Below, one piece after another: positions 9,762-20,394 of a stretch of 64,000 nucleotides of DNA (position 1 is its first letter; every line of letters begins with the position of its first letter). Below the pieces are notes generated by a model that ran no database searches, had not been told where the DNA came from, and saw nothing but the letters and a program-made list of their open reading frames with translations. The DNA is taken from the NCBI RefSeq assembly GCF_001955695.1, contig NZ_CP019236.1, positions 4,278,001-4,342,000 on the forward strand, read 5' to 3'. Both the position numbers and the translations under genes were made by a program. The stretch comes from Rhodoferax koreense. GTDB taxonomy: Bacteria; Pseudomonadota; Gammaproteobacteria; Burkholderiales; Burkholderiaceae_C.

Positions 9762-12047
9762 TCAGCGTCGCCGCGCCGAGCGCACGCCCTGCACTTCGGC
9801 CACCACGCCGAGCACCTTGGTCAGGCGCGCCGCGTCGGCCACCTCGACGGTAAAGGTCATCCAGGCCGTGGACTTGACGCTCTGTGTCTGCACGCCGATG
9901 ACATTCATCTTTTCCTTCGCGAAGACTTCGGAGATGTCGCGCAGCAGGCCCTGGCGGTCCGCCGCCTCCACTGACACGTCCACCGGATACACCGCACCGG
10001 CGGCCTGCTTGCCCGCGCCCCACTCGACATCGATGATGCGTTCGCCGTTGCGCGCCGACATCTCGCGGAAGTTGCTGCAATCGGTACGGTGGATGCTCAC
10101 GCCCTTGCCACGCGTCACGAAGCCGATGATCGGGTCCGGCGGCGCCGGCTTGCAGCATTTGGCAAGCTGCGTCATCAGCGATTCGACGCCGACCACCAGC
10201 ACGCCGCCCTTCGGCGTTTTCTCGGTGTTGCGCGATTTCCTGATCAACAGTTGCTCGTCCGGCGGCAACACCGGCTCGGGCGGACGCAGCACGGTCTCGA
10301 TGGCGCGCAACGAGAACTCGTCCTTGCCGACCACTTCGAACAGATCGTCGGCCGTCTTGAAACCGAGCTGCGCGGCCAGGTCGTCGAGTTTCATGGCCGT
10401 CTTGCCCTCGCGCTGGAGCAGTTTTTCCACCGCTTCACGACCGCGCGCCACGGTGGTATGCAAAGCCATGGCGTTGAACCAGGCACGGGCCTTGGCCCGC
10501 GCGCGGTGGCTCACCAGATAACCGAGTTCGGTGTTGAGCCAGTCGCGCGACGGCCCGCCCTCCTTGGCGGCGGTGATCTCCACGGTCTGGCCGTTCTGCA
10601 GGGGCGTGTTCAGCGGCACCATGGCGCCATCGACCTTGGCACCGCGGCACCGATGACCCAGGCTGGTGTGCACGCTGTAGGCAAAGTCGACCGGCGTGGC
10701 ACCTGCGGGCAACTCGACCACGGCCGCATCCGGCGTGAGCACATAGATGCGGTCGCTCAGCATGTCGTGGCCCTTGTCGGGCCCCGCGTCATGCAGTTCG
10801 CCGCGCGGCTGCAGGCTGCCCGACAGGTCACGCTCCCAGGCCAGCAGCTGGCGCAGCACGGCGATCTTGGTGTCGTATTCGCCACTGGCCGACACCCCCG
10901 CATAACCCTTGGCACCGGCCTCCTTGTACGCCCAGTGCGCCGCCACGCCGTGTTCGGCATGGTCGTGCATGGCCTGGGTCCGGATCTGGATCTCGATCGG
11001 CAGGCCCTCGCCCAGGTTCGAGCCGGCCACGCGCGGCCGCACCACGGTGTGCAGCGACTGGTAGCCGTTGGCCTTGGGCTTGGCGATGTAGTCGTCGAAT
11101 TCGTTGTCCACCGGCGCGAACTGCGTATGCACCCAACCCAGCACGGCATAGCAGTCCGGTACCGTGGGCACCACCACGCGCAGCGCGCGGATGTCGAACA
11201 CCTGGTCGAAATCGAGTGACTTGCCACGCATCTTCTTGACGATGCTGTAGATGTGTTTTGGCCGGCCCTGCACCGTGGCGCGGATGCCCTGCGCGTTCAG
11301 TTCGGCCTCGAGCGTGCTGCGCAACTGTGCGATGCCGGCCTCGCGCTCCACGCGTTTCGAGTCCAGCAGCCTGGCCACCTGCTTGTAGGTGTCGGGCTCG
11401 AGGAAGCGGAAGGACAGGTCTTCCATCTCCCATTTGATCTGCCAGATGCCGAGCCGGTTGGCCAGCGGCGCGAACACCTGCAGCGACTCGCGCGCCAAGT
11501 GCGGCGCCACCGGCGTCTTGCTGGCCGCATGGAAACGCAGCGTCTGCAGCCGCGACGCCAGCCGCAGCATGACGACGCGCAGGTCGCGCGAAAACGCCAG
11601 CAGCATCTTGCGCACGGTCTCGGTCTGCACCGCCGGGTCGTCCACCAGGTGCGCCGAATGCGCCGCGCCGCGCGACAGGCGCTGCACCCGCATGAGTTGC
11701 GTGGTCTCCACGGCCAGCGCGGCGAAGTTTTCCCCGAAGGCCTTGGCGATGACTTCGCGCGGCTTGTTCAGGTGCACGCAGGCATGCACCAGGTAACTCG
11801 CGGCCTGCATGGCCTCGGAACCGCCGACGTCGCGCAGGATCGCGGCCACCGCGTCGGCATGAGCGAGCGTGTTCTCGCCGGAGTCGAGGGTCTCGTTGGC
11901 GATGAGCGGTTCGGCGAAGCCGCGCGCCCGCGCCAGCGCGAGCTCGGGCCCCTGCTGGCCGGCGGCGGCGACGATCAGCCCGGCCGCGGGTTCGACGGAA
12001 AGTGCGGTCTGCTGCGTGTCCGGGTTGGGCGTGAGCGAATGCTTCAT
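9762..12047 (-). CDS. relA: RelA-type (p)ppGpp synthetase
   Basis: 761-residue long RelA/SpoT homologue making the stringent-response alarmone. The N-terminal hydrolase-like domain is degenerate: the HD pair is missing (YLVHACVHLNKP where hydrolases have an HD motif), so it should not degrade ppGpp. The synthetase domain carries FDIRALRVVV, then NEFDDYIAKPKANGYQSLHT, with the acidic EFDD pattern of monofunctional RelA enzymes. A TGS domain (ATPVDFAYSVHTSLGHRCRG), a zinc-finger/helical part with CCKPAPPDPI, and a C-terminal ACT domain follow. ATG 12047 was chosen because the longer frame upstream encodes an unlikely Arg/Trp-rich stretch overlapping the next gene. Confidence 0.93.
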   Translation of the reverse strand: MKHSLTPNPDTQQTALSVEPAAGLIVAAAGQQGPELALARARGFAEPLIANETLDSGENTLAHADAVAAILRDVGGSEAMQAASYLVHACVHLNKPREVIAKAFGENFAALAVETTQLMRVQRLSRGAAHSAHLVDDPAVQTETVRKMLLAFSRDLRVVMLRLASRLQTLRFHAASKTPVAPHLARESLQVFAPLANRLGIWQIKWEMEDLSFRFLEPDTYKQVARLLDSKRVEREAGIAQLRSTLEAELNAQGIRATVQGRPKHIYSIVKKMRGKSLDFDQVFDIRALRVVVPTVPDCYAVLGWVHTQFAPVDNEFDDYIAKPKANGYQSLHTVVRPRVAGSNLGEGLPIEIQIRTQAMHDHAEHGVAAHWAYKEAGAKGYAGVSASGEYDTKIAVLRQLLAWERDLSGSLQPRGELHDAGPDKGHDMLSDRIYVLTPDAAVVELPAGATPVDFAYSVHTSLGHRCRGAKVDGAMVPLNTPLQNGQTVEITAAKEGGPSRDWLNTELGYLVSHRARAKARAWFNAMALHTTVARGREAVEKLLQREGKTAMKLDDLAAQLGFKTADDLFEVVGKDEFSLRAIETVLRPPEPVLPPDEQLLIRKSRNTEKTPKGGVLVVGVESLMTQLAKCCKPAPPDPIIGFVTRGKGVSIHRTDCSNFREMSARNGERIIDVEWGAGKQAAGAVYPVDVSVEAADRQGLLRDISEVFAKEKMNVIGVQTQSVKSTAWMTFTVEVADAARLTKVLGVVAEVQGVRSARRR

Positions 12048-12054
12048 GCCGCGT

Positions 12055-13041
12055 TCAGGAAAGATCGGCGGGCGGTCCGTCCACCAGGAAGGCGGTGACT
12101 GCGGCCACCTGTTCGTCGGCCACCAGCGTGGGCGCATGGCCCACACCGTCGAACTCAACGAGCCGGGCTCTCGGCCCGCGCTGCGCCATGGCGTACGCCG
12201 TGCTCGCCGACAGCAGGTCGGACTGGGCACCGCGCAGCAACAACGTCTGCGCGCCGACATGGTCGTAGAGTTGCCAAAGCGCCTTCTCGCCCTGCGCGGT
12301 GGCCTCCTCGGTCACATCGCGGAAGGTGTCGCCGATGGCCGGGTCGTAGTGCAATGTCAACGGGCCGTCGACCTCGGCCAGTGGATCGAAGGGCGTGCCG
12401 CCGGGCTGGTGCAGCGGGCGCACCATGTGGCGCGAAAGCGCAATCCACTGCGCCGGCGTGTGCGGACCGAAGCCCTTCGAGATCGCCCACATCGCGTCGG
12501 CGGCCTGCTGCAGATTGTCGAATCGGCCGGTCTGGCCGACATAGCCGCCGATGCGCTGCAGCGCGGCGAGTTCGAGCGCGGGCCCGACGTCGTTGAGCAC
12601 CAGACGGCGCACCGGCGCAGGCAGAGGCAGACCGGGCGTTCCGGCCACCGCCAGTCCGATCAACCCCCCCATGCTCGTGCCGACCCAGTCGAGCGTGCGA
12701 ATCGGCGACTGCCGGTGCAACTCGGCCAGCAGGGCGAGCATGTCGCCGGCGTAGACGGGGATCTGGTAGCCACCGCCGTCCTGCAGCCAGTCGCTGTGGC
12801 CGCGTCCCACCACGTCCGGGCAGATCACGCGGGCATGCCGGCTCAGGGCGCCGGCCAGTACGTCGAAATCGCGGCCCTGGCGCGTCAGGCCGTGCACGCA
12901 GACGATCACATGCGGGTTGTGCGCGTCGCCCCACTGCCAGTACGCCATCCGATGCCCGAGCGGGCCGCCCTCGCGGCCGGCGGCCCCGTTCTTGGCGCTG
13001 GCGCCTGGGCAAAAGACATGGTGCAACTGCGGTTCGGACAT
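12055..13041 (-). CDS. Alpha/beta hydrolase
   Basis: 328 residues, alpha/beta-hydrolase fold. Oxyanion segment VCVHGLTRQGRDFD, nucleophile elbow GTSMGG (catalytic serine), and a late histidine in FDGVGHAP. The start MSEPQLHH (ATG 13041) matches the usual beginning of such proteins better than the longer frame. It ends 7 nt before relA starts, on the same strand, so the two may be cotranscribed. The substrate is unknown. Confidence 0.9.
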   Translation of the reverse strand: MSEPQLHHVFCPGASAKNGAAGREGGPLGHRMAYWQWGDAHNPHVIVCVHGLTRQGRDFDVLAGALSRHARVICPDVVGRGHSDWLQDGGGYQIPVYAGDMLALLAELHRQSPIRTLDWVGTSMGGLIGLAVAGTPGLPLPAPVRRLVLNDVGPALELAALQRIGGYVGQTGRFDNLQQAADAMWAISKGFGPHTPAQWIALSRHMVRPLHQPGGTPFDPLAEVDGPLTLHYDPAIGDTFRDVTEEATAQGEKALWQLYDHVGAQTLLLRGAQSDLLSASTAYAMAQRGPRARLVEFDGVGHAPTLVADEQVAAVTAFLVDGPPADLS

Positions 13042-13164
13042 GGCGGACTCAAAACAAAAAGGCATTCGGGACGGCATGCCGACGGGCCGGTAGCCGCGAA
13101 GGAAGACAGCGCGGCACCGAGCCCATCCTAAATCATCCAGAGAAACCCTGAGCCGGACAGCCGC

Positions 13165-14406
13165 TCACAGCGCGCATGAACGGAAGCCGACGAAACGCAC
13201 GTCGTCGCCGGGCAGCGCGAAGCCGCGGAATTTGGGATGCTTCATGCGCGCCCGCGTGGCAAAGGAGGCACCCCGCAGCACCCGTGCCCGGCCGAACCAC
13301 GGCACGGAGTAGCCGATCCACGGATCGGCGCTGAAGCCATCCCAGGGCTGGAAGCGGCTGGCCGTCCATTCATGGACCTCGCCCCAGCGGAAACCCCGGC
13401 GCACGGCGGTGCTTGCCGCCATCTCCCATTCGGCTTCGCTGGGCAGACGGCGCCCGGCCCAGCGGCACCAGGCGTCGGCCTCCCACCAGCTCATGTGCAT
13501 CGCCGGCTGGTTGCCGGCCAGCCGGACGGAGCCGCCAAAGCGCGTCTGCATCACCGCGCCGCTGGCCACGCCGATGTGCTCCACATAGCGGGGGCCGCGC
13601 CGCCCTTCGCGCTCGTCCTGCGCCTGCAGCCAGGCCCAGCCCTCGGGATGCCACAGGGCCTGACGGTCATAGCCGCCATCGTCGACAAACTCCACATACT
13701 GCGCCCAGGTCACCGGCTGGGCGTCGATCTCGCATTCGGCCAAGGATTCGGCGTGTGCCCACTTCTCGTTGTCGAAAACAAAGCCGCCGGGCTCCGACCC
13801 CAGGCGCCACCGGGTGGCCGGCAGCAGCAGGGGCTCGCGCAGATGCGCGCCGGTGGGCAGTGCGATCGACAGCGGCACGCCGCGCGCCTGGGCCAGGGTG
13901 ATGAGCTGTTCGCCGCGCAGGTCTTCGTGGAACAGCGCGAGGCGGTAGAAGTAAAGGGCCTGGTCCTGGTCCGGCGTTCGCTCGAGCAACTCCAGCGTGC
14001 TCTCGAGCGTCTCCAGCAGAAAGCTCTTGGTGGTGGCCAGGCTGGGAGCGCCGGAGTCGTCGCCTGATGGCGGCATCTGGTCCGGGTTCCACCAGCGGTC
14101 GGCATGCGGCTCGATCGAGCCCAGCCGCGTGGGCTGCGCCGGGCAGTCCGTACCCAGCGCGCGCTGCGTGTTGCGGCCCAGCCAGGCCTCGGCCATCCAG
14201 CCGACATGTCCGGCCAGCCAGCGTGGCTCGGGGCCCGCGGCGGGCACGTCGTCGGCCGCCTTCGGTCCCTTCGACTCGAACTGGTCAAGCAGGTGCAGGG
14301 TGTGGTTGCGCGCGTCCATCAGCGCCAGCGACAACAGATCGCGGCCGGCCCGACGCATGTCGGGCGAATCGATGGCAGCCGGTGCGGCGGAAAAGAGCGA
14401 GGACAT
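13165..14406 (-). CDS. SenA/EgtB-like non-heme iron enzyme (selenoneine synthase family), atypical metal site
   Basis: 413 residues with two domains: an N-terminal DinB-like helical domain (about 20-190) and a C-terminal FGE-sulfatase domain (about 215-413, ending KFRGFALPGDDVRFVGFRSC). This is the EgtB architecture. The C-terminal signature and the segments WLAGHVGW and YFYRLALFHEDLRGE resemble SenA, which joins selenosugar to hercynine. In EgtB-type enzymes three histidines hold the iron; two are present (about H67 and H160), but the expected third, in the HxxxHxE motif, is arginine (R164, codon 13915-13917). No senB or senC partner is in the window. It may be an inactive or retargeted paralogue. 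The start could also be ATG 14415. Confidence 0.68.
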   Translation of the reverse strand: MSSLFSAAPAAIDSPDMRRAGRDLLSLALMDARNHTLHLLDQFESKGPKAADDVPAAGPEPRWLAGHVGWMAEAWLGRNTQRALGTDCPAQPTRLGSIEPHADRWWNPDQMPPSGDDSGAPSLATTKSFLLETLESTLELLERTPDQDQALYFYRLALFHEDLRGEQLITLAQARGVPLSIALPTGAHLREPLLLPATRWRLGSEPGGFVFDNEKWAHAESLAECEIDAQPVTWAQYVEFVDDGGYDRQALWHPEGWAWLQAQDEREGRRGPRYVEHIGVASGAVMQTRFGGSVRLAGNQPAMHMSWWEADAWCRWAGRRLPSEAEWEMAASTAVRRGFRWGEVHEWTASRFQPWDGFSADPWIGYSVPWFGRARVLRGASFATRARMKHPKFRGFALPGDDVRFVGFRSCAL

Positions 14407-14640
14407 GCCCCGCATTATTCATCCATGTCCGCACCACCGGCACGCCGGCCAGGGAACCCGCCCTGCCACGGGTTTTCCCTTGTGGATGACGCGGGTCAGG
14501 CCCGAACCTGCGCCCTACAATTCCGGCTCGGCAGAACGACACGCAGCACGGCCTTCAGCGCATGTGCTGCGTGTTTTTGTATCTGGAGCCCGTCTTTGCT
14601 GACGTGGCGCTTACTTTTCGAACTACACGGGACCGACTCA

Positions 14641-15243
14641 ATGCGCGCATTACTGAAGTTCTCCAATGCCGTGGACTGGCTGAACGCCCAGATCGGCAAA
14701 TACGTGATCTGGTTGATCCTCGCATCCACCGTGATCAGCGGCGTCAACGCCGTGGTCCGCAAGGTCTTCAACATGAGCTCCAACGCCTACCTTGAAATCC
14801 AGTGGTACCTGTTCGCGGCGGCCTTCCTGCTGGCGGCCGGGTTCACGCTGCTCAAAGGCGAACATGTGCGGATCGACGTGGTGGCCAGCCGCTTCTCCAA
14901 GCGCGGGCAGATCTGGCTCGACGTCGTCGGCTTCACCTTGTTTCTCACCCCGCTGTGCCTGGTGATCCTGTACTACGGCATTCCGTTCTTCCTCAAGGGT
15001 TATGCCTCGGGCGAGATGTCGTCCAACGCCGGCGGGCTGGTGCGCTGGCCTGTCTACGCCATGATCCCGCTGGGCTTCGGACTGCTGCTGCTGCAGGGCC
15101 TGTCGGAACTGATCAAGCGGATTGCCTTCCTGATGGGCCTGATCGAGGACCCCACGCTCAAGAAGGTGGAGAAGACGGCAGAGGAAGAACTGGCCGAAGC
15201 GATCGCTCGGCTGGCCGAAGCCAAAGCCGCCAAAGCCGACTGA
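14641..15243 (+). CDS. TRAP transporter small permease (DctQ/TakQ type)
   Basis: 200-residue inner-membrane protein with four predicted membrane helices (about 20-40, 55-75, 95-115, 140-165). EIQWYLFAAAFLLAAGFTLLKGEHVRID is the classic DctQ stretch at about residues 45-72. A Glu/Lys/Ala-rich cytoplasmic tail forms a probable coiled coil. It lies 12 nt before the large permease. The facing binding-protein gene resembles TakP, suggesting 2-oxo-acid uptake. Confidence 0.93.
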   Translation: MRALLKFSNAVDWLNAQIGKYVIWLILASTVISGVNAVVRKVFNMSSNAYLEIQWYLFAAAFLLAAGFTLLKGEHVRIDVVASRFSKRGQIWLDVVGFTLFLTPLCLVILYYGIPFFLKGYASGEMSSNAGGLVRWPVYAMIPLGFGLLLLQGLSELIKRIAFLMGLIEDPTLKKVEKTAEEELAEAIARLAEAKAAKAD

Positions 15244-15255
15244 CAGGGAGCCGAC

Positions 15256-17040
15256 ATGGAATTTCTGACACACAACCTGGCCCCGATCATGTTCGCGGGC
15301 TTGATCGTTTTCCTGTTGATGGGCTTCCCGGTGGCGTTCAGCCTGGGTGCCTGCGGCCTGTTCTTCGGGTTCATCGGTGTCGAGCTCGGGCTGCTGCCCG
15401 AGGCCCTGCTGCAGGCGTTGCCGTTGCGCATCTTCGGCATCATGCAGAACGACACGCTGCTGGCGATCCCGTTCTTCACCTTGATGGGGCTGATCCTGGA
15501 GCGCAGCGGCATGGCCGAAGACCTGCTGGACACCATCGGCCAGTTGTTCGGCCCCATCCGCGGCGGCCTGGCGCTGGCGGTGATCCTGGTGGGCGCGCTG
15601 CTGGCCGCGACCACCGGGGTGGTGGCGGCATCGGTGATCTCGATGGGCCTGATCTCGCTGCCGATCATGCTGCGCTACGGCTACGACCGGCGCCTGGCCT
15701 CGGGGGTGATCGCCGCCTCGGGCACGCTGGCGCAGATCATCCCGCCATCGCTGGTGCTCATCATCCTGGCCGACCAGCTCGGCCGCAGCGTCGGCGAGAT
15801 GTACAAAGGCGCCTTCCTCCCCGGATTCATCCTCACGGGCTTCTACCTGGGCTACGTGGTGCTGCTGGCCATCTTCAAGCCCACCTGGGTGCCCGCGCTA
15901 CCGCCGGAGGCGCGCACGATCCGCGAAGACAACGGCAAGGGTGGCCTGCTCTCGCTGCTGCTGCTGACCATCGCCTCCACGGCCGTGGCCGTTTATTTCG
16001 GTGAACACTACGCCGACGTATTGAGCTGGTGGAAGGGCGAGACGGTCGCGACCGTCGCGACCGACGAGACCATCGTGGTTTCGATGTGCGCCGGCGTCAT
16101 GCTGGCCCTGGTGCTGGCGCTCATCAACAAAGTCACCCGCCTGGGCCTGCTGTCGCGCATGGCCGAACGCGTGACCTTCGTGCTGATCCCTCCGCTGCTG
16201 CTGATCTTCCTGGTGCTGGGCACGATCTTCCTGGGCATCGCCACGCCGACCGAAGGCGGTGCCATGGGTGCACTGGGCGCCTTCCTGATGGCCATGGCCC
16301 GCGGCCGTCTCAGCTTCTCGCTGCTCAAGCAGGCGCTCAATACCACCACCAAGCTGTCCTGCTTCGTGGTGTTCATCCTGATCGGCTCCACCGTCTTCAG
16401 TCTGGTGTTCCAGGGCGTGGACGGGCCGCGCTGGGTGGAACACCTGCTGGGCAGCCTGCCGGGCGGCCAGCTCGGTTTCCTGATCGTGGTCAACGTGCTG
16501 ATCTTCTTCCTTGCCTTCTTCCTCGATTTCTTCGAGCTGTCGTTCATCGTGGTGCCGCTGCTGGCACCCGTGGCCCAGAAGTTGGGCATCGACCTGATCT
16601 GGTTCGGGGTGCTGCTGGCCGTCAACATGCAAACCTCGTTCATGCATCCGCCTTTCGGCTTCGCGCTGTTCTACCTGCGCAGCGTGGCACCCGACAAGGC
16701 CTACACCGATCGGGTGACCAAGAAGCTGATCCAGCCCGTGACCACCATGCAGATCTACTGGGGCGCGGTGCCCTTCGTGCTGATCCAGATCGTGATGGTG
16801 GGCCTGATCATCGCCTTCCCCGGCATCGTCTCCAGCGGCCTCGACAAGAATGTCGTCTACGACCTCGACAAAGTGCAGCGCGAGATGGAGGCCGACATGC
16901 CGGCACCGAGCATCGACGCACCCGCGCCGACACCCGAAGGCGGCGCATCCGGCACGGAAGGTGCGGCCACACCGGAGAGCAAGTCCGAGGACGATCCGAT
17001 GAAGGCCCTGCAGGACTCGATGGCGACCGAGAAGAAATAG
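15256..17040 (+). CDS. TRAP transporter large permease (DctM/TakM type)
   Basis: 594-residue sodium-coupled membrane transporter subunit with about a dozen hydrophobic helices. DctM features include GFPVAFSLGACGLFFGFIG near the start, IPFFTLMGLILERSGMAEDLL, and LGTIFLGIATPTEGGAMGALG. It is longer than many DctM proteins because of a hydrophilic tail of about 60 residues rich in Pro, Ala, Glu and Asp. ATG 15256 has GGGAG upstream. It forms an operon with the small permease and ends in a strong terminator. Confidence 0.95.
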   Translation: MEFLTHNLAPIMFAGLIVFLLMGFPVAFSLGACGLFFGFIGVELGLLPEALLQALPLRIFGIMQNDTLLAIPFFTLMGLILERSGMAEDLLDTIGQLFGPIRGGLALAVILVGALLAATTGVVAASVISMGLISLPIMLRYGYDRRLASGVIAASGTLAQIIPPSLVLIILADQLGRSVGEMYKGAFLPGFILTGFYLGYVVLLAIFKPTWVPALPPEARTIREDNGKGGLLSLLLLTIASTAVAVYFGEHYADVLSWWKGETVATVATDETIVVSMCAGVMLALVLALINKVTRLGLLSRMAERVTFVLIPPLLLIFLVLGTIFLGIATPTEGGAMGALGAFLMAMARGRLSFSLLKQALNTTTKLSCFVVFILIGSTVFSLVFQGVDGPRWVEHLLGSLPGGQLGFLIVVNVLIFFLAFFLDFFELSFIVVPLLAPVAQKLGIDLIWFGVLLAVNMQTSFMHPPFGFALFYLRSVAPDKAYTDRVTKKLIQPVTTMQIYWGAVPFVLIQIVMVGLIIAFPGIVSSGLDKNVVYDLDKVQREMEADMPAPSIDAPAPTPEGGASGTEGAATPESKSEDDPMKALQDSMATEKK

Positions 17041-17209: not shown

Positions 17210-18292
17210 TTACAGCTTCTGCGTTGCCATGAAAGCGTCGAAACGGCTTTCGGCAAAACGGAACCACAGCACCTGGTCTCGCTGGAAGGTCCGCAGGTCG
17301 GCGTAGATCTTTTTCCATTCCGGGCTCTTGGCGTCGTTTTCGGCGAACACCTCCATCGACGCCTTGAACGAGGCCTCGAGCACGGCTTGCGAGAACGGCA
17401 GGACCTTGGTCTTGGCCGCCACCAGCTGCTTCAGGGCCGTGGGGTTGAGTGCGTCGTACTTGGCCAGCATGTCGATGCTGGCCTGGGCCGACGCGGCCTC
17501 GACGATGGCCTTGTTTTCGGCCGACAGGCCGTCGAATGCCTTCTGGTTGATGTAGAAGTCGACCTCGGGGCCACCCTCCCACCAGCCAGGGTAGTAGTAG
17601 AAGGGCGCCACCTTGTTGAAGCCGAGCTTCTGGTCGTCGTAAGGGCCGACCCATTCCGCAGCATCGATCGTGCCTTTTTCCAGCGCCTGGTAGATTTCGC
17701 CGCCGGGAATGCTTTGCGGCACCGCGCCGAGCTTCTGCATGACCTCGCCCACCAGACCGCCACCCAGGCGCATCTTCAGGCCCTTGAAGTCGGCGATGGA
17801 CTTGATTTCCTTGCGGAACCAGCCGCCCATCTGCGTGCCCGTGTTGCCGCCGGCGAAACTGAGCATGTTGTAGCCCGCGTAGAACTCGTTCATGAGCTTG
17901 CGGCCGTTGCCGTGCGTCATCCAGGCCGTCATCTGGCGCGCGTTCAGGCCGAACGGCACGGCGGAACCCAGCGCGAACGCGGGGTTCTTGCCATAGAAGT
18001 AGTAGGGCACGGTGTGGCACATCTCGACCGTGCCGTTCTGCACGCCGTCGACGACACCGAACGGAGGCATCAATTCGCCGCCCGCGTGCACCGAGATTTC
18101 GAACTTGCCACCGGACATCGCCTTCACCGCCTTGGCAAACACTTCCGCGCCGCCGTAGATGGTGTCGAGCGACTTAGGAAAACTGGATGCCAGGCGCCAG
18201 CGAATGGCGGCCTGCGCGTGCACGGCCGGGGCGATGCCGGCAGCGATCACACCCGCGATGCCGGAGTGCTTGATGAGGGAACGACGATCCAT
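17210..18292 (-). CDS. TRAP transporter substrate-binding protein, TakP-like
   Basis: 360-residue periplasmic solute receptor. The export signal begins MDRRSLIKHSGIAG (RR pair, Tat-like) and ends VHAQA. The mature protein starts IRWRLASSFPKSLDTIYGGA. QMGGWFRKEI, EWVGPYDDQKLGF and YYYPGWWEGG are close to what is known of TakP, the alpha-keto-acid receptor of Rhodobacter, so 2-oxo acids such as pyruvate or branched-chain oxo acids are likely ligands. GGGAG precedes ATG 18292. It is transcribed toward the permease operon rather than with it. Confidence 0.92.
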   Translation of the reverse strand: MDRRSLIKHSGIAGVIAAGIAPAVHAQAAIRWRLASSFPKSLDTIYGGAEVFAKAVKAMSGGKFEISVHAGGELMPPFGVVDGVQNGTVEMCHTVPYYFYGKNPAFALGSAVPFGLNARQMTAWMTHGNGRKLMNEFYAGYNMLSFAGGNTGTQMGGWFRKEIKSIADFKGLKMRLGGGLVGEVMQKLGAVPQSIPGGEIYQALEKGTIDAAEWVGPYDDQKLGFNKVAPFYYYPGWWEGGPEVDFYINQKAFDGLSAENKAIVEAASAQASIDMLAKYDALNPTALKQLVAAKTKVLPFSQAVLEASFKASMEVFAENDAKSPEWKKIYADLRTFQRDQVLWFRFAESRFDAFMATQKL

Positions 18293-18316
18293 GGAGTTTC
18301 TCCCAAGAGCTGAATG

Positions 18317-18351
18317 AAAAAGGCCGTCCCTCTTTTGAAGAGACGACCGGC
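18317..18351 (-). terminator. Probable dxs terminator
   Basis: Imperfect hairpin with inner stem CTCTT/AAGAG and outer GCCG/CGGC, followed on the minus strand by TTTTT. It lies between dxs and the binding-protein gene. Confidence 0.5.
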
Positions 18352-18447
18352 TGGTTGTCCGACGAATTGTAAGAACCGTAGCGTGCTCGACCGCTGGGGT
18401 TTTCCCCCGCAAAAAGACCGCTCGCCACCCCAGAAATCGCCCCGTTT

Positions 18448-20394
18448 TTATGCTACCAATTTCAGAGCAGCCTGCGCTTTTTCGACCAGCGCCGGAAACC
18501 GTTCCTGGATGGACTTCTCGATGCCGGCGGCGTCGAGTCCCTGCATCGCCATGAGTTTCACGGGATCGCCGTGTTCGATGAACCGGTCGGGCAGGCCCAG
18601 CTGAAGCACGGGTTTCAGGATGGCCGCGGCCTGCAGCGCTTCGAGCACCGCACTGCCCGCGCCGCCCATGACCGCACCGTCCTCCAGCGTCACCAACGCC
18701 TCGTGATCGGCGGCCACCTGCAGCAGCAACTCGAGATCGAGCGGCTTGGCCCAGCGCATGTCGGCGACGGTGGCACCGAGCTTTTCGGCCACGGCCAGTG
18801 CCGGATGCAGCAAGGTGCCGAAGGCCAGCAGGGCGATGCCCTTGCCCGGCTCGCGCGGCTTGCCACCCAGGCCCGCCGCGCGGCGGATTTCGCCCTTGCC
18901 GAATGGCAAGGCTTCGAGACCGGGCTGCACGGCGACACCGGCCCCCGCCCCGCGCGGATAACGCACGGCCACCGGGTGGTTCTGCGCATACGCCGCACTC
19001 AGCAGGCCCCGGCATTGGTTCTCGTCGGATGGGCAGGCGATGCTCATGTTCGGGATGCAGCGCAGGAACGGGATGTCGTAGGCCCCGGCATGGGTCGCAC
19101 CATCGGCACCGACCAGGCCGGCCCGGTCGAGCGCGAACACCACCGGCAGGTTCTGCAGCGCCACGTCGTGGATCAACTGGTCATAGGCCCGCTGCAGGAA
19201 AGTGGAATAGATCGCCACCACCGGCTTCAGCCCTTCGCAGGCCAGGCCCGCGGCGAAAGTCACCGCATGCTGCTCGGCGATGCCCACGTCGTAGTAGCGC
19301 CTGGGGAACCGCTTCTCGAATTCGACCAGGCCAGAGCCTTCGCGCATGGCCGGCGTGATGCCCACCAGACGCGTGTCCTGCGCGGCCATGTCGCACAGCC
19401 ACTGGCCGAACACCTGGGTAAACGTCGGCGCCGAGGCGGCCGTGGCCTTCTGCAGGCCCACCGCGGGATCGAACTTGCCCGGGCCGTGGTAGGACACGGG
19501 ATCGGCCTCGGCACGCCCGTAGCCGCGGCCTTTTTTCGTGACCACGTGCAGGAACTGCGGGCCGGTGAGGTCCCTCAGGTTCTCCAGGGTAGGGATCAAG
19601 GAATCGAGATCGTGCCCGTCGATCGGGCCGATGTAGTTGAAGCCGAACTGTTCGAACAGCGTGGCCGGCACGACCATGCCCTTGGCATGCTGCTCGAAAC
19701 GCTTGGCCAGTTCGAACAGCGGCGGCGCGGCCTTGAGCACCTGCTTGCCGACATTCTTGGCGGCCGCGTAGAAATGCCCGCTCATGAGTTGCGCAAGGTA
19801 GCGGTTCAGCGCGCCCACCGGCGGACTGATGCTCATGTCGTTGTCGTTGAGGATCACCAGCAGGTTGCAGTCGGAAACGCCCGCGTTGTTCAGCGCCTCG
19901 AAGGCCATGCCCGCGCTCATTGCGCCGTCGCCGATGATGGCCACCGCGCGGCGGTCCTCACCCTTTTGCTTGGCCGCCAGGGCCATGCCCAGCGCGGCCG
20001 AGATCGAGGTGCTCGAATGGGCGGTACCGAAGGCGTCGAAGGGGCTTTCGGCGCGCATCGGGAAACCCGACAGCCCGCCGAGCTGGCGCAGCGTGGCCAT
20101 GCGCTCGCGCCGGCCGGTGAGGATCTTGTGCGGATAGGTCTGGTGGCCCACGTCCCACACCAGCCGGTCCTCGGGTGTGTTGAAGACGTAGTGCAGCGCC
20201 ACCGTGAGTTCGACGGTGCCCAGGTTGGAGCTCAGGTGGCCGCCGGTCCTGGACACGCTCTCCAGCACGAAGTTGCGCAGTTCGTCGGCCAGCGGCTTGA
20301 GCTCGCCACGGGGCAGACGGCGCAGATCGGCCGGCTCGCCGATGGACTGCAGCAGCGGATAGGACGATGGGTGGGCAGTAGGCATAGATTCCAT
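18448..20394 (-). CDS. dxs: 1-deoxy-D-xylulose-5-phosphate synthase
   Basis: 648-residue thiamine-diphosphate enzyme condensing pyruvate and glyceraldehyde 3-phosphate in the first step of the MEP isoprenoid pathway. Early motifs are [14 protein letters not shown] and [14 protein letters not shown]. The ThDP motif is [18 protein letters not shown], with [13 protein letters not shown] after it. The transketolase middle domain has the conserved [17 protein letters not shown] second ATG lies three codons in (20385) and could be the true start. Third gene of an xseB-ispA-dxs cluster. Confidence 0.97.

What the first reader, a model, noticed from the sequence alone, without database searches (positions are those of the whole stretch)
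13165..14406. Orphan SenA/EgtB-like enzyme with an arginine in the iron-binding histidine motif
The C-terminal signature, WLAGHVGW and the YFYRLALFHEDLRGE segment fit the selenoneine synthase (SenA) branch of EgtB proteins. Seen: H67 and H160 are kept, but the HxxxHxE motif reads HEDLRGE, so the expected third iron ligand is R164 (codon 13915-13917, CGC; one base from CAC). Known: EgtB-type enzymes use a three-histidine site. senB and senC, which normally accompany senA, are absent from the window. Either a decayed gene, an enzyme with an altered metal site, or a paralogue beside a complete sen locus elsewhere.
Basis: partly seen in the sequence, partly recalled or inferred. Interest (0 to 1): 0.72.

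Follow-up and report, generated by a model that had tools for sequence, protein, structure and literature searches.

The report
Retired selenoneine synthase with altered pocket
This bacterial gene descends from the enzyme that makes the selenium antioxidant selenoneine, but it and its close relatives have lost key iron-holding and substrate-holding residues and the partner genes while still being kept intact by selection, so it is very probably no longer a selenoneine synthase and has taken on another, still unknown job.

Summary
In detail: a minus-strand gene (14406..13165), 413 aa, SenA-like, with Arg164 (CGC) where SenA/EgtB have the third iron histidine. It is neither a lone oddity nor ordinary decay. 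It belongs to a SenA paralogue clade ("SenA-II", my label; 84 proteins). Where the genome has SenB and no other SenA was found beside it, 34 of 34 SenA-II proteins keep all 49 positions that are invariant in 43 other SenA proteins. Where SenB was not found, or another SenA sits beside it, 49 of 50 have lost 5-24 of them. The window protein has lost 13, including the third His, the equivalent of EgtB's catalytic Tyr377 (now Trp363) and of hercynine-binding Asn414 (now Gly395). Its genome has no SenB or SelD. The locus matches Polaromonas sen loci stripped of senC and senB. Yet 8 of 8 genomes of the genus keep the gene with 15 of 15 examined residues identical, 6 of 8 lack EgtD and EgtB, and pairs of such proteins show dN/dS 0.08-0.27. 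Best reading: a repurposed pseudoenzyme of unknown ligand; some relatives are annotated as SenA.

The parts
13165..14406 (-). senA-II: SenA-derived protein, 413 aa, weak DinB_2 match (below Pfam cut-off) + FGE-sulfatase domain
   Evidence: AlphaFold model pLDDT 92.5, best PDB match VpSenA, TM 0.86/0.88
13915..13917 (-). codon of Arg164 (CGC) at the third iron-His position (VpSenA H182 in chain 8k5i numbering)
13918..13920 (-). codon of Leu163 (Met in the SenA reference set; Gln137 in MthEgtB)
   Evidence: EgtB match read from the alignment
13927..13929 (-). codon of His160 (second metal His, kept)
14206..14208 (-). codon of His67 (first metal His, kept)
13372..13374 (-). codon of His345 (Trp in the SenA reference set)
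13318..13320 (-). codon of Trp363 at the catalytic-Tyr position (MthEgtB Tyr377; VpSenA Tyr374 in chain numbering)
13222..13224 (-). codon of Gly395 at the hercynine-binding Asn position (MthEgtB Asn414; VpSenA Asn406 in chain numbering)
14407..14640 (.). 234-bp gap between senA-II and dctQ; senC and senB lie at this place in Polaromonas; no remnant detected here
14641..15243 (+). TRAP transporter small permease (DctQ position), syntenic with Polaromonas sen loci
   Evidence: synteny; no NCBIfam match, name from position and appearance
15256..17040 (+). TRAP transporter large permease DctM
17210..19015 (-). ORF whose C-terminal part is the TRAP substrate-binding protein (DctP, by appearance and synteny); the true start lies inside
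12055..13077 (-). alpha/beta hydrolase-like protein (no NCBIfam cut-off reached); neighbour in 3 of 4 further genus loci of 9 kb or more
9762..11990 (-). RelA/SpoT family protein; neighbour in the same 3 of 4 genus loci

Best explanation
The gene is a member of a second SenA lineage (SenA-II) that, by its intact signature and SenB, still looks like the selenoneine synthase of relatives such as Polaromonas. In the window's lineage senB and senC were lost, the iron/hercynine/selenosugar site was released from constraint, and the protein was kept as a pseudoenzyme: same fold, with third His ligand, catalytic Tyr and hercynine Asn replaced and a new set of residues conserved instead (for example L64, A65, W363, A374, G395, A397). 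Shown: sequence changes, co-loss with SenB, purifying selection, conserved new residues, persistence without the enzymes that make the known substrates. Inferred: that it cannot make selenoneine, and that it now works non-catalytically by binding some other ligand or a partner protein through the altered pocket. The ligand is unknown; only positions 163, 164, 363 and 395 are placed in the active site, by alignment.
For: (1) 49 positions invariant in 43 SenA of clade I and basal groups: 0 deviations in 34 of 34 SenA-II in SenB genomes with no other SenA found beside SenB; 5-19 in 32 of 33 in genomes where SenB was not found; 5-24 in 17 of 17 in genomes with another SenA beside SenB. Independent pairs 7 to 0, p 0.0156. 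(2) The window protein has lost 13 of the 49, including H164, Y363, N395, M163, R116. MthEgtB Tyr377 is critical and Gln137/Asn414/Trp415 bind hercynine (passages of PMC10903977 and PMC9103826; positions matched). (3) Own genome lacks SenB and SelD over cut-off and any MnmH match. (4) Synteny: Dxs-DctP-DctM-DctQ-senC-senB-senA in Polaromonas loci such as L014, L029 and L060, the same without senC-senB here. (5) dN/dS (NG86) 0.08-0.27 in 15 non-intact pairs against 0.07-0.22 in 15 intact pairs. (6) 8 of 8 genus genomes keep the gene; 6 of 8 lack EgtD and an EgtB over cut-off. (7) W363 98%, A374 95%, L64 93% of 118 non-His proteins (window's included), 0% in 77 reference SenA. (8) Confident SenA-like fold.
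Against: H67 and H160 are still mostly kept (112 and 117 of 120), as a working two-His metal site would also show. One SenA-II with the full signature, L032, has no SenB found (2.0-Mb MAG; its 97%-identical sister L026 has SenB). On the first, quicker tree the pair test gave 3 to 0, p 0.25; with the triad alone the careful tree gave p 0.0156-0.0625. No biochemical data, ligand or partner; the neighbours (hydrolase, RelA, TRAP) give no pathway.
Confidence: 0.72

Rival explanations
1. A new enzyme: a two-His metal site (H67, H160, completed by water, Glu166 or His345) in an altered pocket catalyses a different oxidation on a non-hercynine substrate.
For: H67 kept in 112 and H160 in 117 of 120 homologues, Glu166 in 120 of 120; many changes are conserved, not random; His345, 60 of 120, is new in this clade.
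Against: H67 and H160 rank only 155th and 116th of 413 positions in conservation, and one or other is lost in some lineages (RHC, HFR, HER, HRI, QHQ, QHL, RRA). Position 345 is Arg in 42 of 120. The catalytic Tyr is gone. Glu166 is invariant in working SenA too, so it says nothing.
Confidence: 0.17
2. A decaying gene, without function since senB was lost and simply not yet erased.
For: Third ligand and active-site residues lost together with SenB; at least 11 changes of the triad state on the tree (the count does not tell loss from gain).
Against: dN/dS 0.08-0.27, open frame in 8 of 8 genus genomes, 139 of 413 positions at least 95% conserved in 118 non-His proteins, new residues conserved.
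Confidence: 0.06
3. A still active selenoneine or ergothioneine synthase that tolerates the changes.
For: SenA fold and the two other His kept; the own genome still has EgtD and EgtB.
Against: No SenB or SelD over cut-off in the genome; third His, Tyr and Asn lost; 6 of 8 genomes of the genus lack EgtD, so hercynine by the known route is absent there.
Confidence: 0.03

Closest known systems
SenA, selenoneine synthase (Variovorax paradoxus; PDB 8k5i, 8k5j, 8ryz; NCBIfam NF041186)
   Same: Fold (TM 0.86/0.88), 39-40% identity, scaffold residues, first two His
   Different: Third His, catalytic Tyr, hercynine Asn, Met163, Arg116 and others lost; no SenB/SelD partner; 376 bits, below the 420-bit cut-off
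SenA-II with intact signature (Polaromonas and others, e.g. L012)
   Same: Same clade; many lie at the same place beside DctQ/DctM/DctP (20 of 28 loci of 9 kb or more with intact triad have DctM); 58-62% identity for the Polaromonas-titled ones
   Different: Those keep all 49 invariant positions and live with SenB; this one does not
EgtB (ergothioneine sulfoxide synthase; e.g. 4x8b, 6qki)
   Same: Same superfamily and fold
   Different: 182 of 360 bits on TIGR03440; the genome has a separate EgtB over cut-off beside EgtD at C1:2623659
OvsA (ovoselenol selenoxide synthase; 8u41, 8ux5)
   Same: Same fold; the title of 8ux5 names three residue changes that give a hercynine-binding variant, two of which I infer to lie at the Tyr and Asn positions lost here
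   Different: By recall, OvsA keeps its iron site and is an active enzyme on histidine

Membership tests
SenA (functional selenoneine synthase) | Three-His iron site | tested here: not met
   Arg164 at the third position
SenA (functional selenoneine synthase) | Catalytic Tyr (EgtB Tyr377) and hercynine-binding Asn (EgtB Asn414) | tested here: not met
   Trp363, Gly395
SenA (functional selenoneine synthase) | SenB and selenophosphate synthetase in the genome | tested here: not met
SenA (functional selenoneine synthase) | NCBIfam NF041186 over cut-off | tested here: not met
   376.3 of 420 bits; note that other non-His SenA-II do pass it (e.g. L015, L043), so the cut-off alone does not tell them apart
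SenA (functional selenoneine synthase) | Makes hercynine-selenosugar selenoxide | not testable with these tools
   needs an enzyme assay
SenA family by descent | Falls among SenA in a tree and has the SenA fold | tested here: met
   SenA-II clade, SH-aLRT 99; Foldseek
EgtB | TIGR03440 over cut-off, three-His site | tested here: not met
   181.8 of 360 bits; Arg164
Pseudoenzyme | Catalytic residues lost, fold and purifying selection kept | tested here: met
Pseudoenzyme | No catalysis; a non-catalytic role shown | not testable with these tools
   needs assay and phenotype

The most novel reading that the evidence does not exclude
A recurrently evolved class of proteins in which the selenoneine synthase, once freed of SenB (by loss of SenB or by a second SenA), is reused on the same scaffold with newly conserved residues in its pocket for a ligand or reaction unrelated to hercynine and selenium, also in genomes that lack the makers of both.
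Probability: 0.45. Interest if true: 0.78.

Novelty: new variant of a known kind. Interest (0 to 1): 0.64.

Why it matters
Some of these proteins carry the database name 'selenoneine synthase SenA' (P0023 and P0025, both HHR with Trp363/Gly395), and several non-His ones pass NCBI's SenA cut-off, so selenoneine capacity can be over-predicted from SenA alone. The co-loss pattern gives a simple sequence-and-genome test of real SenA function, names positions that matter (49 of them), and points to a family whose present role is an open, testable question. Relatives with selD kept near senA, senB gone and the triad already broken look like stages of a pathway being taken apart.

Tried and rejected
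Sequencing or local error: rejected, Arg164 in 8 of 8 genus genomes and in 82 of 120 aligned homologues. Second intact SenA in this genome: rejected; the other hits are an EgtB (C1:2623659, over the EgtB cut-off, beside EgtD) and an FGE-like protein. Apparent exceptions (G076, G120, G066: SenB present, only a broken SenA listed): each stretch around SenB holds an intact-motif SenA. Intact-triad SenA-II with no claim on SenB (L058, L059, L147, L149, L156): all five lack 5 or more of the 49 positions. Remnant of senB/senC in the 234-bp gap: only a chance-level tblastn hit of 24 residues, E 0.57. Clue from neighbours: a ModE-like regulator and tungstate-transporter-like genes lie downstream in several SenA-II loci, named by eye only, with intact and broken forms alike (L012 is intact) and not here. 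Distances in the model could not be measured: no coordinates are given. Literature: nine searches, judged by listings and abstract starts, showed no paper on broken or repurposed SenA; of three papers I saw passages. The library is open-licence only, and the original SenA discovery paper (recalled) was not seen.

Rows left out: the query duplicate L001, partial L002, L046, L120_3000 and L130 were not put in the tree, nor the cut-off SenA of L182; L120_2770 and the two SenA/EgtB of L121 and L131 were left out of the site counts (on). YN00 failed for 7 of 30 pairs, so NG86 is quoted. SenB presence lists were entered by hand.

Full report
Observation. The ORF named in the finding lies on the minus strand, 14406..13165, 413 aa. 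It is SenA-like: 376 bits on NCBI's SenA model (cut-off 420), 182 on EgtB (cut-off 360), and its best solved relatives are VpSenA 8ryz and 8k5i at E about 1.5e-75. Its motif HEDLRGE aligns with VpSenA HEAMHAE, so Arg164 (CGC, 13915-13917) is at the third iron-ligand position; H67 and H160 are kept. The three-His iron site of MthEgtB is stated in a passage I saw of PMC10903977.

Recurrence. One search found 7871 homologues and listed the best 120. In the alignment of 120 (window protein included) the residue at 164 is R 82, L 14, C 8, A 6, V 5, H 2, Q 2, I 1. The 8 genomes held for the genus all have the gene, with Arg164 in each.

Two SenA lineages. A tree of 131 proteins, made without the three ligand columns, separates a clade I (23 proteins, 23 of 23 HHH, 21 of 23 seen beside SenB) from a clade II of 84 that holds the window protein (SH-aLRT 99 for each; quick tree). 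In clade II, 40 of 84 have the intact triad.

The partner rule. I combined in-locus SenB, genome-wide SenB, genome-wide SenA and follow-up stretches. For clade II: SenB in the genome and no other SenA found beside it, 34 of 34 triad intact; SenB not found, 3 of 33 intact; SenB with another SenA beside it, 3 of 17 intact. For one of the 17, L063, that other SenA (L119) falls outside clade I in the tree. A fairer measure uses 49 positions invariant in 43 proteins outside clade II: deviations are 0 in 34 of 34, 5-19 in 32 of 33 (the other, L032, has 0 and comes from a 2.0-Mb genome record; its 97%-identical sister L026 has SenB), and 5-24 in 17 of 17. Allowing for kinship, independent pairs go 7 to 0 with one undecided (p 0.0156) on a careful tree built without these 49 columns; with the triad alone p is 0.0156-0.0625. 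On the first quick tree the triad pairs went 3 to 0 (p 0.25). Outside clade II one more broken SenA (HYR, L121) is a second copy in its genome.

What was lost here. The window protein deviates at 13 of 49: N59P E64L F71M S108P R116D M163L H164R A167Q W345H Y363W N395G R401D D403V. By alignment Y363 is MthEgtB Tyr377 and N395 is Asn414 (chain numbers one higher than the papers'); M163 is Gln137 (read from the alignment). Passages seen: Tyr377 is critical for sulfoxide synthase activity (PMC10903977); Gln137, Asn414 and Trp415 bind hercynine (PMC9103826). The title of PDB 8ux5 says that three residue changes give an OvsA variant that binds hercynine and makes selenoneine; that two of them lie at these same sites is my inference.

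The locus. In Polaromonas loci such as L014, L029 and L060 the order is Dxs-DctP-DctM-DctQ-senC-senB-senA; in the window it is the same without senC and senB, with 234 bp between senA and dctQ and no detectable remnant. Eight relatives (L007, L010, L015, L027, L028, L042, L062, L155) still have selD near a non-intact senA while SenB was not found in the genome. The own genome also lacks SelD over cut-off and any MnmH match, while 6 of 8 genus genomes have SelD.

Not decay. dN/dS by NG86 is 0.08-0.27 in 15 chosen pairs without and 0.07-0.22 in 15 chosen pairs with intact triad. Of 8 genus genomes, 6 lack EgtD and EgtB over cut-off (5 of these 6 are 95-100% complete, one 71%) and 8 lack SenB; three of those six (L006, L137, L138) give dN/dS 0.08-0.11. 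In 118 non-His proteins (window's included) W363 stands at 98%, A374 95%, L64 93%, A65 90%, A397 85%, G395 82%, each 0% in 77 reference SenA. The 8 genus proteins are identical at 15 of 15 positions examined (LAHMHLRHWWAGADV; positions chosen after seeing the data). The AlphaFold model is confident (pLDDT 92.5) and matches VpSenA (TM 0.86/0.88).

Mechanism. Shown: co-loss, residue changes, selection, fold (predicted). Inferred: without third ligand, Tyr and Asn it does not make selenoneine, and the altered pocket serves another ligand or partner, most likely without redox catalysis. A two-His metal enzyme is the main rival (0.17): H67 and H160 are kept in 112 and 117 of 120, but rank only 155th and 116th of 413 positions and are lost in several lineages.

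Limits. Many relatives are MAGs, where not finding SenB is weak evidence, and a genome search can overlook a copy. The SenB lists were entered by hand. The genomes of 30 of 80 loci were not searched genome-wide; all 30 show SenB in the locus. The active-site place of most new residues is not measured: no coordinates. No ligand, no assay.

Noticed in passing
G000 (own genome), whole: The own genome (100% complete) has no SelD over cut-off and no MnmH (tRNA 2-selenouridine synthase) match, although 6 of the 7 other genus genomes have SelD and 6 of 7 have MnmH over cut-off: selenium use seems lost in this species.
   Followed up: partly
L012, L043, L052, L057, L031, L011, L008, L062, L015 downstream of senA-II: A ModE-like regulator and tungstate-type ABC transporter genes lie downstream of senA-II in several genera, with intact or broken SenA alike; named by eye, not by a model.
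   Followed up: no
L121 2137 onward (G043:C17:1632140-1633306): A second, independent broken SenA (HYR) outside clade II, in a genome with an intact SenA and a SenB elsewhere, and near an EgtB-like gene.
   Followed up: partly
L120 (G037:C1:2048500-2054500): SenA and SelD of one assembly come in two pieces and SenB has a stop: sequencing indels or a sen locus in decay. Left as is.
   Followed up: no
L166 1824 onward: All three ligand positions changed (RRA) and the longest end branch of the tree, yet an open frame.
   Followed up: no
window 14641-17040 and 17210-19015: TRAP transporter genes stay beside senA-II in many genomes (DctM in 32 of 52 clade II loci with 9 kb or more); its substrate is unknown.
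   Followed up: partly
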